Below are positions 10,252 through 18,299 of a stretch of DNA of 64,000 nt, piece by piece. The stretch lies in the NCBI GenBank assembly GCA_010015805.1, contig ML978127.1, forward strand, positions 186,001 to 250,000. Reading direction: 5' to 3'. The notes under the pieces are model-generated. The model worked only from the letters and a program-made list of their open reading frames with translations. It made no database searches and was not told the DNA's origin. The stretch comes from Rhizodiscina lignyota (lineage: Eukaryota; Ascomycota; Dothideomycetes; Aulographales; Rhizodiscinaceae). The translations under genes were made by a program, and so were the position numbers. The first letter of the stretch is position 1, and each line of letters begins with the position of its first letter.

Positions 10252-11385
10252 CTAGAAAATGTCATCTGCGCTACTCGCCGCCGCAACAGCAGCAGTCTGT
10301 GTCGCAGCAGTTGCATCACTCGGTTTGTCCTTCCCTCCAATCTCATCCCCAACAAATACCGCCAGGCCCGCAAACGCGTCGGAGAGAGTGCGCGAATAAT
10401 ATTCTTTGAGATCGTATCCTCCAGCATATATCTGTGGGTCCTTCTTTGCCATGTCGAACCAATCCCACTTGTAATCGTCCTGCACGACGAAATAGCTGTG
10501 GTCCACCTTGTAGCCGCCGAAGGGGTCGTATGGCTTCTCTGGCTCGGGAGCAGCAGCACGCCCTTTCAATCCCTTGAAACGGAGACCTGTATCTTCCTTC
10601 GCCATAGACTCCTGCTGCGCTGCTGCTGCGGCAGCCTGTTTCTTCCTCATTAACGCACGCGCAGTCTCACTCGCTATCTTCCGTGCGTCGCTCACGTCCC
10701 CGCTCGCCAGGCGATTAATGACATCTTGTCTCCCCTCTAGCCGCTCTCTTCGCTCTTCCTCGTCTTGCCTGACTGCTGCTGCACGCCGCTGCTTGGCTGC
10801 CTCGTTCTCCGCCGCCTGCCGTGCTTGGAAGGACTTTGTCTCCGTCGCTGCGAGGACTTCGTTTTCGTCAATCTCGCGGCGATTTGATTCTTGGTACTGC
10901 GCAATCTTTCGATTTGTGGCTTCGATTTCAATGCCGTTGAGCAGGTTGAATGTAATGTCCTCCACTTGATTCAGATAGTCGTTGTAATCCCTCAGCGACT
11001 CGAAATCTTCCTCGCGCTTGTTGAAGGTCTTCGCCATCTTCCGACGAATATCGACTTCTCGCTCCACGGCGATATCTTCGAAAGTGAGAGGGCGGAATTT
11101 GCCTTTTCGTAACGTGCGCTTGCAGCCGGCGACGGGGCAAGGTGCCGGTCCGTGAGTGAAGATACGGTCGACGCACGACTCGCACATTTTGTGGTAGCAT
11201 TCCGGATTGACGAGGAATCGCATGTTCGGGTTGAGGTACGTGGAGGATTTACAGACTGGGCAGATTTCTGTGGGTTGAGGTATTAGTATGAGACCGTCTG
11301 GAATTGAGCTCTTGAACATACCTCCATCGTTGACGAGGCTGCGCTTGACGCCCTGCGCGCCATCGCGGTGCGCGAGCCTGGACAT
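10252..11385 (-). CDS. TFB3: TFIIH/CAK assembly subunit (MAT1/Tfb3)
   Basis: Exons on the minus strand: 11385-11322 and 11267-10252; 359 residues. The N-terminal C3HC4 RING finger starts at Cys24 (EICPVCKSSTYLNP), continues NPECYHKMCESCVDRIF and ends PCPVAGCK. A helical coil rich in Glu/Arg follows (to about 260), then a conserved C-terminal tail with PYDPFGGY. MAT1/Tfb3 bridges the Cdk7-cyclin H kinase to core TFIIH in transcription and nucleotide excision repair. The 54-base intron (11268-11321, GTATGT...CAG) sits just before the RING. Divergent from the TPR/TIR-like gene with about 490 bases between starts. Confidence 0.95.
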   Translation of the reverse strand: MSRLAHRDGAQGVKRSLVNDGGMFKSSIPDGLILIPQPTEICPVCKSSTYLNPNMRFLVNPECYHKMCESCVDRIFTHGPAPCPVAGCKRTLRKGKFRPLTFEDIAVEREVDIRRKMAKTFNKREEDFESLRDYNDYLNQVEDITFNLLNGIEIEATNRKIAQYQESNRREIDENEVLAATETKSFQARQAAENEAAKQRRAAAVRQDEEERRERLEGRQDVINRLASGDVSDARKIASETARALMRKKQAAAAAAQQESMAKEDTGLRFKGLKGRAAAPEPEKPYDPFGGYKVDHSYFVVQDDYKWDWFDMAKKDPQIYAGGYDLKEYYSRTLSDAFAGLAVFVGDEIGGKDKPSDATAATQTAAVAAASSADDIF

Positions 11386-11874
11386 GGTTGCTCCTAGTAT
11401 TTTTGGAGAGAGGGAGGTGAAAAAAGGACGCCAGGAAAGTGAAGAGGGGGATGCTTTGGAGAGAGGGGGGAAGGTGGAGGAAAGATTGCTAATATAAAGA
11501 GGGCGCTGAAGCTTAGATAGCACGCTAGGTCCCACACATGAATGTGGCGTTTTCTGCGGAGGCGGATGTTGCCGAGCACGCCTATGCCCCGTCTACATGT
11601 AAGGACCTGAATAGTTCAACGCAGCCATCGCGAAATCCAGTTGAGCGCGAGGCTGTCTAAACAATTCGATGGCTCTTCTGTAGACCTCTTCTCGGCGCTT
11701 CTTCAAATCTCTGCCGCACCGTCTCTCCCGTGACTCACACTACTAACATCTCGCGTCAAAGTGTCCGGCAGCTGGTCTCTCTTTAATGTCGAGCGTCAGA
11801 ATTGGGCATGTATCTTTGGTCTCTGGAAATTATTTCATGCATTCACTCCTCTTGCCTTCAGAATTCGCTTGATC
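11386..11874. promoter_or_regulatory. shared divergent promoter, TFB3 / TPR-TIR-like gene
   Basis: The 489 bases separate two divergent start codons. Pyrimidine-rich sequence lies in front of 11875. A frame extending upstream to 11761 starts at GTG and lacks conserved features. I see no clear TATA box for either gene. Confidence 0.4.
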
Positions 11875-14802
11875 ATGACTACCCCCGACACATCAGATCT
11901 CCGAGAACCTCTCCCCAGCCAGCAAAATGGAGATTCCAGCACAGCAGGCGACATAATAGCTACTGCCAGCATCGCAGTTGACGAATGTGTATGCAAAATA
12001 CCGCCATCCGCCTTGTTACGGATGCTTCACGGCGTGGGCGTGGCAACAAAGACCCCCGAGGGCATTATTGAACTAGTCGCTGCATGGATCTTGTCTCGAA
12101 GAGTTACTGGATTCCATACTCCAGATAACGATCAAATTGATGCAGATGTTTCCTTTCCACTTTCGAAATGGATTGATACGATAGACTCTAGCCATCTTAG
12201 AGAATCCGACGACTTTCTGTCACTGGCCAGCATGGCAATCGGAGTTGCATTTCTGCGGGAGTCCTGCCGGCAGGACCATCATGTCACCGATGCAGAACTC
12301 GAGATCGTCTGGCAACTCATTTTCAAAGCGCTCACATCTACGCATCTCAGCCAGCCCTTTTACACTGCATCTCGCAGCGCGCAAGGGTTCCTGTCAGTCG
12401 CCCTCTGTAGTCTGGTGAAGGAGAATGGAGATATTGACGAGCTATACCGACTTCATGTTTGGCTACCCGATGAGAAGCGTGGAAGTCACGAATTTGCAGT
12501 ACATTCCCACCAACCTTTTGCCCAGAGCTGGATACTAGCTGGTGAAGGAAAGGATCATGCTTATAAGGTTCAACGAAATGTAGACTCGGAAGTTGCCACT
12601 CACGCGGAATATGAGCTCGCATGGGAGATTGGCAGAAATCTTCCAGGCACTACTTACAGCGCAGATCATAAATATTCCGTTGTCAAAAATACAGGAAGAT
12701 TGGTTCACACTACAGAATTGGGCTCGGCGGCTCACACTCGAGACATGACTTATACGATCGACGCAAATTGCTTCCACACAACAGAGGTTGCGCCGGATGC
12801 GTTCCATGCTACTCTTTTCTTCTTCGACTCTCACCGTGGATTCGTGAAAGATGCAGGCGTCCTGGGCCCCAAAAATGGAGATTCTAATGTCGTGGTTCGT
12901 GACTCTGCCGGTGTGACACCAGCAGATCTCGCCAGCGCCGCTAATGCTGTACGCTCCTGGGAAAAGTACATGGAACGAGGTCGGAGATACGGTCGGCGGT
13001 CTGAATTGGAGCACGAATTTCGAGAATTCAACAATGCACTCAACGAGTGCGATGCAATCGAAAGTGTACCACATGCAACTCGCTACAGACATCTGGTTCT
13101 TGGAGAGTTGGGATACCTGAACAGGAAGTTTGGAAAGTACGAAGTAGCCAAAGACCAATTGGAGGAAGCCATCAGAGGCCTGGACGGCACTGTGGAGCAA
13201 GTGGAGGTTCGCGGTGAATTAGGCGTCGTTTACCGTCATATGAATCGTCTTGAGGATGCAAGACGCGCATTCCAGACTCAATACGACAAAGCGAGGCAGA
13301 TTAACAACGACCTTGCAACATGTCGTGCCATCGGAAATTTGGGCATGGTCAACTATCAGCTATCTCAGCAAAATCACGACGGTCAGTTACTGGAGCTAGC
13401 CATCCAACAGCAATTTGAACGCATTCGCGAGGCACGTCGTATCCAGGAGACAATGGAGGTTCGAACGACGGATCAGAGAAAGAAAGCCCAATGGACGAAA
13501 CAAGTGTCCTCCTGGGAGTCTATTGGCCTGGACCGTCTGTCCCTTTGCTATACAGCACAAGGAAACACAAAGGAGGCAGTCAAAATTTGTTTACAGTCAC
13601 AAAAGATTACATGCCGCTCAGAAGATCCTACTGTGATCGCATTCTCACGCTTTTTCTTCGGCCGGGCGTTGTTACACGACGGACAATGTGAGGAAGCACT
13701 AAAGCAGTTCAATTCTTCTGACAGATGTACTCCTGCTATTGCGTTATGTAAAGAGCCCTCTGAGGAACATCGGCGATATTTGAAGGAATTGGTGGATGCC
13801 GGGGCGAACTTGGATCTTACCGACGAGAATAGCTACACTGCATTGGATTACGCCGTGTTTAATGGCGACTCAGCAGCGGAGCAGATAGTGCTTGAAGGAC
13901 TCCACCAAAAGCTCGAAGGCGATGTTGGGCGCAAGATTGTGGAGAGTCAGAGAGAGGCAAGGCTTCGGAAAGCCTATCGCGAGCTCTTTCAGGAAAAGAT
14001 GCGACCAGTACTCCTACGTGGCGGCGGCCATAAGACACAAGAGAATCTTCGGCGTGTTTACGACAATGCTCTCGCTGAAGACAAGGGCAAGAGAGAGATG
14101 TTTGATCAGCTCAAATTTGTGCGCTACTCTAATTTCCTCAACTTTGGCAGGCTGCCCCGATCCAGCGACGGACTTGCGCAGCCACTTATGACTGGACCCC
14201 AGGGATGCTACGGTGAGGCTTCGGTTGATTTCGTCATCTTCTTCTCCTATCGATGGATCAATAAAGAAGGAGGAATATCCTTACCGGACGACATGATGAA
14301 CACCCAGTATCACAGAATGGTCGCCGCAACTGAAGAGTTCCTGAGACTTCATGGAAGAACAGATCGAGACAAATTGGGCATATGGATGGTAAGTCACTCT
14401 GTCACAGTAAACTACTGGTCGACATCTCATTCATCCGCTTGACAGGACTATGCCTGCGTAAACCAAGACGAACCGGCCTCAGGTGTCGCGGCACTTCCCA
14501 TGATTCTTGCTCAGTGCGACGCAATAATAAGTCTCGTCGATGATATTTTCTATAGCCGGGCGTGGTGCTGCGTCGAAAGTATCATTGCACAGACACTGAA
14601 GAAATCGTACAACGAGCATCTATGGTACGAGCATGTGCCTATTCAACTAGACGAGAGCGGAATCGGTGGTGGTGGGAGATGGGGCTTAAGGGAAGGGCCA
14701 ACAGATTTCCAGATTGTCATGGCAGAGAAAGACCTAACAAAAGAAGAGGAGGACCGACCCAAGGTCTTGTTCTTAGAAAGGCAGAGCAGGTTGTTGGGAT
14801 AA
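11875..14802 (+). CDS. TPR-ankyrin protein with C-terminal TIR-like domain (NLR-like)
   Basis: Exons 11875-14388 and 14446-14802; 956 residues to a TAA. Order: a fungal N-terminal module of unknown function with HSHQPFAQSWILAGEG and FHATLFFFDSHRGF; tetratricopeptide repeats at about 396-502 and 549-615 (for example GELGYLNRKFGKYEVAKDQL, GELGVVYRHMNRLEDARRAF); one ankyrin-like unit at about 632-677 (LVDAGANLDLTDENSYTALD); then a TIR-like fold from about 784: VDFVIFFSYRWI, IWMDYACVNQDE, ILAQCDAIISLVDD, SRAWCCVESII. The W-C-x-x-E pattern is where TIR NADases carry their catalytic Glu. No signal peptide, so an intracellular sensor-like protein is inferred. Homologous coding sequence continues past the TAA (see 14803-15618), so this form may be a truncation. 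Confidence 0.75.
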
Positions 14803-15618
14803 ATCACCAGTGCCATGAAAGGTGAGTATTGAAACACCAAATGCAAGAGTAGACTGACCAACTTGCTCTGCTCGAACAGCGGTATGTTGCGAAACATTTC
14901 CTTCAAGTGACATGCTTAGGTTCGTTGAAGAACTCTGCCAGGAATTCGCATCCTCGAACACAGTTGCCACAGTTGAAAACTTCGACGAAGGATGCAGTGC
15001 TGCGGTAAAGGCAAAGCTGGCTTATAGCAGGATATGGATTTCAAATTGTGTTGAGAGAAGCTTATATATTTCTGACAGAGCATCTACTCTGCTCAGCACG
15101 GTAACCGTCGCATACGAAGCTCGGGAGATAATGCTGGACTGATATGACCGCAGTGCTACAGTTTGATGGCTCAACGCGACAATTGGCTCAATCTTCGCAC
15201 CGCTACACGTTCATCGAGATTGCAGAACTTAGTCGCAATGACAACCTCCAGATGAAGGAAATCTCGCTTGCCGCGCAACGAGACAGCACCGACATGCGCG
15301 CGATTGCTGTTCTGACGTTAGTGTTTCTGCCAGCTACATTTGTCGTTGTAAGAATCCAAAAAGGCGTCTCGGGTACATGCAGACCCACTACTGATGGCAT
15401 CATTTCTAGACGGTTTTCAGCACTAGCTTCTTCAACTTTACCAAGACTGGCCTGATTGTTCAGATCTTCATTGGGTCTACCGGGTCACTACTGTGGGCCT
15501 CACAGCAATCGTCGTAGCTTCCTGGCTCCTTTTCTCCTGGCGCATTCAGAAAAAACGCAAAATGGCTTCACGATCTGATAGCGATGGTAGAACAACGATG
15601 GCGAAGAAGACTGTCTAA
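14803..15618 (+). pseudogene. decayed CorA-like membrane tail of the TPR-TIR-like gene
   Basis: Directly after the TAA (14800-14802) the same frame continues ITSAMK, then a good intron (14822-14879), exon 14880-15100 (SSDMLRFVEELCQEFA, SDRASTLLST), intron 15101-15153, and SLMAQRDNWLNL. The frame then breaks near 15197-15217 and resumes as EIAELSRNDNLQMKEISLAA and MRAIAVLTLVFLPATF, the first membrane helix of the CorA-like family. Intron 15348-15409 joins TVFSTSFFNF; a second frame break near 15460 leads to the second helix (HWVYRVTTVGLTAIVV) and a basic end stopping at 15618. One stop and two frame breaks disable it; all splice sites remain good, so decay looks recent. Sequencing error is the main alternative. 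Confidence 0.7.
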
Positions 15619-17093: not shown

Positions 17094-18299
17094 ATGCCAC
17101 CCGCCCAACCATCCTCGTCCACCTCATCAGCTTCCAATCCACAAGCACCATCTCTACTACCCGTATCTCAGGGCCCTCGTCTTATTGTTTACCACCAGAC
17201 GCATCATCTCTCAAATGGCGATCCTGTTTCTCTCCTTCCCCTCATAACGAATAACACTGGCATCACCCATGTGATTGTCGCCGCGCTACACCTGAACGAT
17301 GGACCTGGCAATATCACGTTAAACAACGATCCCCCTTCGCACAATAAGTTTGACCAGCTATGGGGTGAAGTGCGATGGCTACAAGGTGCGGGGGTTAGAG
17401 TGCTACTGATGCTTGGAGGAGCGGCACAAGGGACTTATGAGAGATTATGCGGAGACAATGCTTCGGTATGAAGATGGCATCTCTTCACTATATATACGAT
17501 CATGTCTTGCTAATGTAGGCCTCAGTTCGAAGCCTACTACCAGCCGCTCCTCTCCATCCTCCGAACCTACAACTTCAACGGCATAGACCTTGACATAGAG
17601 GAACCCGTGACGCATTTACCAATCCGTCGTCTCATCCTCCGGCTCCACCAAGACATGGGCGATTCCTTTCTCATCACTCTCGCACCCGTAGCCACTGCTC
17701 TGACCCCGGACCCAAAGATACCCATCATAATGCCCGTCTTCGGCCTGCTGCCTTCCCTTCGCCATCTCTCAGGCGACAAATTCAGCTACTTTGTCCTCGA
17801 GAGCGATCCAGAGCTCAAGCGCATAATAAGCTGGTATAATGTGCAGTTCTACTGCGGATGGGGTGATGCGAGCCGGACGACGCACTATGATACAATCATT
17901 CGGGCGGGCTGGGATCCGAGCAGAGTCGTCATGGGCGTGGTCACGAACGCTGAGAACGGCGCTGGCCATGTCCCTCCCGAGCGACTGAGCGAAGTGATCA
18001 CAACGCTGAGGCAGACGTATCCGGACTTCGGTGGGGTCATGGGATGGGAATACTTCAATGCTGGGTTGGAGAGCAAAGAGGGGAATGGGCCGTGGGAGTG
18101 GGTGGGGAAAATAGGAAAGGCGGCTAGGATGGTCTCGCCAGCAGCTTCCGTACCGATAGGCCCAAAGCCGAACATGTGGAAAGAGGAGGACGTGCAATGG
18201 CTGATAGAGATGGGGGCGGATAGGGGCAAAGCAGAAGGAGCGCTTGAGGCGGCGGATGGGAACGTGGAGGTCGCAGCAGGATTGCTGTTTGAAAGCTGA
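17094..18299 (+). CDS. GH18 glycoside hydrolase with C-terminal UBA domain
   Basis: Exons 17094-17465 and 17526-18299; 381 residues. The GH18 barrel shows a beta-strand LIVYHQTHH, a GVRVLLMLGG strand, and the catalytic motif NGIDLDIE with Asp145, Asp147 and acid/base Glu149; later strands include VQFYCGWG and GVMGWEYF. After a linker, residues about 340-381 read as a ubiquitin-associated domain (EDVQWLIEMGADRGKAEGAL, then DGNVEVAAGLL). GH18 enzymes cleave chitin-type or N-glycan GlcNAc linkages. There is no signal peptide; the N-terminus is Ser/Pro-rich. With UBA this points to a cytosolic enzyme acting near ubiquitin, possibly on misfolded glycoproteins (inference). Confidence 0.85.

What the first reader, a model, noticed from the sequence alone, without database searches (positions are those of the whole stretch)
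11875..15618. Fungal intracellular receptor-like locus: TPR + ankyrin + TIR-like + CorA-like membrane tail
One locus encodes a fungal N-terminal module of unknown role, TPR repeats, an ankyrin-like unit, a TIR-like fold with FFSYRW at the start and W-C-x-x-E at the place of the NADase glutamate, and originally a two-helix CorA-like membrane domain. TIR domains signal or kill by cleaving NAD in plants, animals and bacteria, and CorA-like effectors occur in bacterial defence. A sensor-TIR-membrane chain in a fungus would be a plausible self/non-self or cell-death system. That is inference; no HET domain is present.
Basis: partly seen in the sequence, partly recalled or inferred. Interest (0 to 1): 0.8.

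Follow-up and report, generated by a model that had tools for sequence, protein, structure and literature searches.

The report
Fungal repeat protein with TIR/HET-like domain

Summary
The gene is real: 11875-14388 plus 14446-14802 (+), one 57-bp intron, 956 aa. [quoted passage not shown] One paralog found in the 33.4-Mb genome keeps TPR-ANK-TIR-like order, the intron position, the three motifs and the stop codon, under constraint, without a CorA-like tail. The CorA-like pieces at 14903-15618 lie after the shared stop and resemble separate CorA-like genes.

The effector domain is not a standard TIR: Pfam TIR and TIR_2 match nowhere in the genome at E<=1. Its only Pfam match is HET, below cut-off and only when the domain is scanned alone. 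Its first half has HET spacing, its second half TIR spacing, with the Glu position of both. A cyanobacterial plasmid protein may be a distant relative. Structure prediction failed (pLDDT 35), so the fold is unconfirmed.

Most likely: a soluble, non-NLR TPR-ANK receptor or scaffold ending in a TIR/HET-superfamily domain that signals or kills, perhaps by cleaving NAD+. Activity is untested. New variant of a known kind.

The parts
11875..14388 (+). exon 1: N-terminal module, TPR, ankyrin, linker, first part of the TIR/HET-like domain
   Evidence: open frame from ATG; Pfam TPR/Ank
14389..14445 (+). 57-bp intron (GTAAGT...CAG), predicted by sequence; the paralog has an intron at the same codon and phase
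14446..14802 (+). exon 2: rest of the TIR/HET-like domain and conserved C-terminal segment, ends ...LERQSRLLG*
12430..12888 (+). second part of the N-terminal module (residues 186-338), a possible small-ligand (cupin-like) fold; lead only
   Evidence: weak tblastn match to a Rhodococcus plasmid protein; motif reading recalled, no family hit
13087..13674 (+). TPR region (residues about 405-600)
   Evidence: Pfam TPR_12 E 1.2e-13; coordinates
13708..13893 (+). ankyrin repeat region (residues 612-673)
   Evidence: Pfam Ank_4 E 6.4e-5 above cut-off, Ank_2 6e-4 below cut-off
14218..14637 (+). TIR/HET-like domain, residues 782-902 (intron inside): FFSYRW 789-794, IWMDYACV 836-843, WCCVE 878-882 (Glu882 codon at 14575, Cys879 at 14566)
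14638..14799 (+). conserved C-terminal segment (residues 903-956), 62% identical to the paralog over 45 aligned codons up to the shared stop
14903..15100 (+). probably NOT part of the gene: piece 1 of a CorA-like gene fragment, no other match in the genome at E<=1
15141..15347 (+). probably NOT part of the gene: piece 2 of the fragment, with the AVLTLVFLPATF membrane helix, similar to 7 other loci
   Evidence: 45% over 64 aa to L014; Pfam CorA E 0.048, below cut-off
15410..15618 (+). probably NOT part of the gene: pieces 3 and 4 of the fragment (FSTSFFNF; WVYR...second membrane helix) in different frames

Best explanation
An intact fungal gene for a soluble TPR-ankyrin protein with a C-terminal effector domain of the TIR/HET superfamily. 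The TPR/ankyrin part (and perhaps the N-terminal module) senses or scaffolds. On activation the C-terminal domains assemble, and Glu882, possibly with Cys879, cleaves NAD+ or a related nucleotide to signal or to kill the cell, as TIRs do and as HET domains are suspected of doing. Shown here: gene structure by sequence, repeats, motifs, paralog conservation, profile similarity to HET, and similarity to TIR once a cyanobacterial relative is included. Inferred: fold, assembly, NAD+ cleavage, role in self/non-self recognition or immunity. It has no NLR-type NTPase and no membrane helix of its own.
For: Pfam TPR and Ank; HET as the only Pfam match of the domain scanned alone. Profile comparison of the two fungal sequences with a 24-row HET alignment from the same genome: score 32.2, probability 65; 0 of 100 and 0 of 300 column shuffles reach it. 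Adding the Pseudanabaena plasmid protein P0001, which was picked for likeness to the fungal domain and not to TIR, gives similarity to an 11-row TIR alignment over 72 columns with SYRW, IWMD and WCCVE each opposite its TIR counterpart: score 28.5, probability 36, 0 of 300 shuffles. Glu is at the W-C-x-x-E position; plant TIRs RPV1, Roq1, RUN1 have WCLDE/WCLEE. dN 0.42 with saturated synonymous sites, and identical stop and intron positions in the paralog. HET domains induce cell death and are described as remote TIR homologs (passages of PMC4986451, PMC10890737) with a conserved, functionally important Glu (passage of PMC9153377).
Against: The HET match is below Pfam's cut-off, is absent from the whole-protein scan at E<=1, and its profile alignment covers only 15 columns around IWMDYACVNQ. 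The two fungal sequences alone show no TIR similarity above shuffles (44 of 300 reach it); P0001 alone against TIR scores 22.2, probability 2.8, with no null computed. HET against TIR also fails in the same test, so the test is weak. The structure prediction failed (pLDDT 34.7). [quoted passage not shown] No expression or activity data.
Confidence: 0.55

Rival explanations
1. The domain is TIR/HET-like in fold but not enzymatic: a scaffold that only assembles by homotypic contacts, with the TPR-ANK part bringing partners together.
For: Some TIRs act by assembly, and Glu is also frequent in TIR groups without reported activity (PMC9153377, PMC7075850, passages). Only two copies were found in the genome, unlike HET (151 matches).
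Against: WC-x-x-E and the cysteine next to the Glu are identical in both paralogs; 60.5% identity in the domain against 39.3% in the TPR part.
Confidence: 0.25
2. One reading: TPR-ANK-TIR with an original CorA-like membrane tail lost by mutation.
For: CorA-like pieces begin 100 bp downstream on the same strand.
Against: Both paralogs stop at the same codon after the same conserved C-terminal motif. The paralog locus has no match to pieces 1 and 2; it has two short weak matches to pieces 3 and 4 (E 0.02 over 15 aa and 0.18 over 21 aa), of which that to piece 3 lies antisense to a frame that looks by eye like a transporter. Similar tails occur in open frames of 536 and 570 codons without the TIR-like domain (L018, L020).
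Confidence: 0.08
3. An ordinary TPR-ankyrin regulatory protein whose C-terminal domain has another alpha/beta fold unrelated to TIR in function.
For: No TIR or HET family match above cut-off; single-sequence model uninformative.
Against: Three motifs in TIR order and, for the second half, TIR spacing; HET-type IWMDxxCVNQ motif at HET spacing.
Confidence: 0.12

Closest known systems
HET domain (PF06985), effector of fungal incompatibility (e.g. Podospora HET-E, BH)
   Same: SYxW, [IL]W[IV]DxxC[IV] and RxWxxxE motifs in order; first spacing 41 residues against 36-49 in 21 of 30 HET loci measured from the same genome; weak Pfam match
   Different: second spacing 32 residues against 75-127; below the Pfam cut-off; at the C-terminus behind TPR-ANK, whereas HET is N-terminal in the HNWD NLRs (passage of PMC4986451)
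TIR domain (PF01582/PF13676), e.g. plant RPV1/RUN1/Roq1
   Same: F-x-S-[YF] strand, D after strand B, W-C-x-x-E; second spacing 37 against 34-35 in seven TIRs and 39 in L054, whose motif lacks the Trp (8 of 11 rows measured)
   Different: first spacing 41 against 20-21; no Pfam TIR match at E<=10; extra D-x-A-C-[VI]-N-Q motif
TIR and TIR-like (SEFIR-resembling) N-termini of some fungal NLRs (PMC9815663, PMC10197012, passages)
   Same: TIR-related effector domains in fungi, some outside the Pfam families
   Different: those sit N-terminal to an NTPase; this protein has none. I could not compare sequences
Hypothetical protein WP_126390537.1 of a Pseudanabaena plasmid (P0001)
   Same: FISHRW, FWYDFSCLPQ, RGWCFAES in the same order; 33% identity over 80 aa
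   Different: about 90 residues between the first two motifs; beside AAA, VWA and TPR genes; database-wide E only 0.8
Fungal NLRs (NACHT/NB-ARC with TPR or ANK)
   Same: TPR and ankyrin repeats joined to an effector domain
   Different: no P-loop motif and no NACHT/NB-ARC match; order reversed

Membership tests
TIR domain | match to Pfam TIR or TIR_2 | tested here: not met
   no TIR family for the domain at E<=10; none in the whole genome at E<=1 for PF13676 and PF01582 (six-frame, so domains split by introns can be missed; other TIR-clan models not searched genome-wide)
TIR domain | profile similarity over strand A, strand B and helix C in register | tested here: inconclusive
   met with three rows (0 of 300 shuffles reach it), not met with the two fungal rows (44 of 300)
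TIR domain | Glu of helix C (W-C-x-x-E) | tested here: met
   WCCVE in window gene and paralog; WCLDE/WCLEE in three plant TIR chains
TIR domain | spacing strand A to strand B about 20 residues | tested here: not met
   41 against 20-21 in 8 of 11 TIR rows that could be measured
TIR domain | spacing strand B to the Glu motif | tested here: met
   37 against 34-35 in seven rows and 39 in one, 8 of 11 measured
TIR domain | five-stranded TIR fold | tested here: inconclusive
   single-sequence AlphaFold2 pLDDT 34.7, order E-H-E-H-E in the core; fold search never ran
TIR domain | NAD+ cleavage | not testable with these tools
   needs expression; not a feature of every TIR
HET domain (PF06985) | Pfam score above 22.5 bits | tested here: not met
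   16.0 bits, E 0.016; not listed for the whole protein at E<=1
HET domain (PF06985) | SYxW and [IL]W[IV]DxxC[IV] motifs with about 43-residue spacing | tested here: met
   41 against 36-49, median 43, in 21 of 30 HET loci measured
HET domain (PF06985) | 75-residue or longer segment before RxWxxxE | tested here: not met
   32 against 75-127 in the same 21 of 30
NLR | NACHT or NB-ARC NTPase | tested here: not met
   no Pfam match at E<=1, no [AG]xxxxGK[ST] in 956 aa
CorA-like membrane effector | membrane domain in the same polypeptide | tested here: not met
   frame closes before it; paralog agrees

The most novel reading that the evidence does not exclude
The domain is a surviving intermediate between TIR and HET: HET-type first half, TIR-type second half, with a working catalytic Glu and neighbouring Cys, in a soluble TPR-ankyrin receptor without an NTPase. 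Showing that it cleaves NAD+ (or makes cyclic nucleotides) would tie fungal HET-type cell death to TIR chemistry and reveal a non-NLR class of fungal immune receptor.
Probability: 0.3. Interest if true: 0.75.

Novelty: new variant of a known kind. Interest (0 to 1): 0.5.

Why it matters
How HET domains kill is an open question: PMC10197012 says their TIR-like activity has first to be demonstrated, and PMC10890737 that how they induce death is unknown (passages). A domain with HET spacing in front, TIR spacing behind and a clear W-C-x-x-E gives a small, testable bridge between the two. It also shows a TPR-ankyrin-effector architecture without an NTPase, which surveys that start from NTPase domains would not collect (my inference).

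Tried and rejected
Relatives of the domain: none confirmed in 84,980 prokaryote species genomes (98 pattern hits, none confirmed; two short patterns, so distant relatives are missed), none in viral contigs, none in phages at E<=1. In plasmids there were two weak hits for the window domain: Pseudanabaena (E 0.8) was followed; Sphingomonas (E 0.2, query 19-77) was not read. The paralog domain gave one Rhizobium hit at E 7, not read. P0001 found no further relatives. No PDB match by sequence, no PADLOC match.

The first TIR comparison, with three close plant TIRs, had no power and was widened to 11 rows. L056 (Rahnella plasmid; plant-like TIR in two pieces, perhaps contamination) was fetched and left out. 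For the HET alignment 24 of 30 fetched loci gave a row. In the spacing counts 9 of 30 HET loci and 3 of 11 TIR rows did not match my patterns and were dropped; the first HET count set the anchor two residues early in two loci, and the repeat gives 36-49 instead of 37-49. P0001 is the pick of a database search, so its pairwise scores (E 1e-7; hhalign 50.0 against a maximum of 25.8 in 200 shuffles) overstate significance. Its FISHRW motif lies outside the tblastn alignment and is the better argument; no probability was computed.

Cupin-like reading of residues 186-338: the Rhodococcus protein P0005 scores 40.1 against a maximum of 22.4 in 300 shuffles, again after selection from a database; its second half alone does not stand out (105 of 300 shuffles reach it), and no family matches. 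Kept as a lead.

Structure: both AlphaFold2 jobs ran on one sequence and gave pLDDT 34.7 and 40.0; neither is used as evidence. The fold comparison was asked for eight times and the machine was busy each time.

Paper searches listed nothing that I recognised as a TPR-ANK-TIR fungal protein or as a measured NADase activity of HET; I saw listings and passages only. One sentence of PMC12881547 says that 'both of these signaling modules' (HET as TIR relative, and PNP_UDP) exhibit hydrolase activity on NAD+ and ATP, while its table gives ND for HET/TIR proteins. The legend of Figure 1 of PMC9153377 names ankyrin repeats among TIR-protein domains of other taxa. The library lacks most subscription papers and all bioRxiv preprints.
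Full report
What is there. The window lies in a 33.4-Mb fungal genome held without a name (G000, contig 7). On the + strand an ATG at 11875 opens a frame to 14388, followed by a 57-bp GTAAGT...CAG intron and a second exon to a TAA at 14800-14802, giving 956 aa. Pfam finds TPR_12 (E 1.2e-13) and Ank_4 (E 6.4e-5) above cut-off. Residues 782-902 form the 'TIR-like' domain: FFSYRW at 789-794, IWMDYACV at 836-843, WCCVE at 878-882. A P-loop pattern search found none, and the best 19-residue hydrophobicity mean is 1.85, inside the domain's core.

The paralog. The same genome holds one relative that the searches found, on contig 2. Read by the same splicing, it begins at the TPR part, has an intron at the same codon and phase, conserves the three motifs (SYKW for SYRW), and ends at the same codon (LERQSKLLG against LERQSRLLG). 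Over 587 aligned codons identity is 49.7%, dN 0.42, synonymous sites saturated. The TIR-like part is 60.5% identical, the TPR part 39.3%, the last 45 aligned codons 62.2%. Both genes have thus probably been kept by selection, and the C-terminal segment with its stop is most simply ancestral.

The CorA-like tail. Pieces at 14903-15100, 15141-15347 and 15410-15618 are in several frames behind that stop. The middle piece matches seven other loci in the genome at E<=0.001; the first piece matches none at E<=1. Two of the seven, L018 and L020, have open frames of 536 and 570 codons that by eye hold both membrane helices, so this kind of tail exists in separate genes. Piece 2 is 45% identical over 64 aa to L014. 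The paralog locus shows no match to pieces 1 and 2, only short matches to pieces 3 and 4 at E 0.02 and 0.18. The simplest reading is a fragment of an unrelated CorA-like gene. How the pieces were once joined was not reconstructed.

What the domain is. Scanned alone its only Pfam match at E<=10 is HET, E 0.016, 16.0 bits against a cut-off of 22.5; in the whole-protein scan at E<=1 HET is not listed. The genome has at least 151 HET matches but no match to Pfam TIR or TIR_2 at E<=1 (domains split by introns could be missed). The two fungal sequences match a HET alignment of 24 rows from the same genome (score 32.2; 0 of 300 column shuffles reach it; 15 columns aligned) but not an 11-row TIR alignment (14.4; 44 of 300 shuffles reach it). 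With the Pseudanabaena protein added as a third row, both HET (29.3) and TIR (28.5) exceed all 300 shuffles, and the TIR alignment spans 72 columns with the three motifs in register. hhalign's own probabilities remain modest (44 and 36). HET against TIR fails in the same test, while bacterial against plant TIRs succeeds (probability 98), so the test sees near relatives and misses remote ones.

Spacing. In 21 of 30 HET loci that showed all three motifs, the first gap is 36-49 residues (median 43) and the second 75-127 (correcting). The window domain has 41 and 32. In TIRs the first gap is 20-21 and the second 34-35, or 39 in one row whose motif lacks the Trp (8 of 11 rows measured); the window domain measured the same way has 41 and 37. 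The domain therefore has a HET-like front and a TIR-like back. This is my main new observation; it rests on motif patterns I chose and on two fungal sequences.

Catalytic residues. WCCVE puts Glu882 at the plant W-C-x-x-E position and Cys879 at the cysteine three before it. PMC9153377 (passages seen) reports that a cysteine neighbouring the catalytic Glu matters for the cyclic-nucleotide activity of a plant TIR; that it is the same cysteine is my reading. The same source says HET keeps a functionally important Glu, and also that not all TIRs hydrolyse NAD+.

Distant relative. tblastn against plasmids gave a Pseudanabaena hypothetical protein at E 0.8. Its aligned part includes GFWYDFSCLPQ and RGWCFAES; outside the aligned part it has FISHRW. 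It sits beside AAA, VWA and TPR genes. PMC7159879 (passages seen) describes MoxR-vWA conflict systems with TIR effectors, cyanobacteria among them; whether this is one was not tested.

N-terminal module. Residues 1-354 have no second copy found in the genome and no credible family match. Residues 186-338 show a weak match to a Rhodococcus opacus plasmid protein (E 0.2). The order of His motifs suggests a cupin-like fold (recalled pattern), but the second half does not exceed shuffles alone.

Structure. AlphaFold2 on the single window sequence, with 19 intron-derived residues inside, gave pLDDT 34.7. The order strand-helix-strand-helix-strand of its core is compatible with TIR, but at this confidence it is not evidence. 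Fold comparison could not be run.

Mechanism. By analogy, the repeats sense or scaffold, the C-terminal domains assemble, and the Glu acts on NAD+ or another nucleotide. All steps after the domain assignment are inference. Passages seen in PMC4986451, PMC10197012, PMC10890737 and PMC9815663 treat HET as a remote TIR relative, and PMC10197012 and PMC10890737 say that its activity or mode of killing still has to be shown; PMC12881547 is less clear (see Tried and rejected).

Verdict.

Noticed in passing
window 12430-12888 and L061:1036-1683: Residues 186-338 resemble (E 0.2 in plasmids) a Rhodococcus plasmid protein with LHVW-P, H-x-H and S-x-[IV]-L-x-G order, suggesting a cupin-like small-ligand fold; P0005 itself has a Methylobacterium plasmid relative (E 4e-8).
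   Followed up: partly
L047:2147-3286: Pseudanabaena plasmid protein with TIR-like motifs and about 90 residues between the first two, beside VWA, AAA ATPase and TPR genes; a possible MoxR-vWA type conflict system.
   Followed up: partly
G000 whole genome: At least 151 HET-domain matches in a 33.4-Mb fungal genome, but no Pfam TIR or TIR_2 match at E<=1.
   Followed up: partly
window 17514-18299: A weak glycoside hydrolase 18 match (E 0.0047, below cut-off) followed in the same frame by a UBA domain match (E 3.2e-4, just below cut-off): an odd chitinase-like and ubiquitin-binding-like combination.
   Followed up: no
window 10255-11592 (-): TFIIH subunit MAT1/Tfb3-like gene (Pfam MAT1 E 9e-49, RING E 7e-31), an ordinary neighbour.
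   Followed up: no
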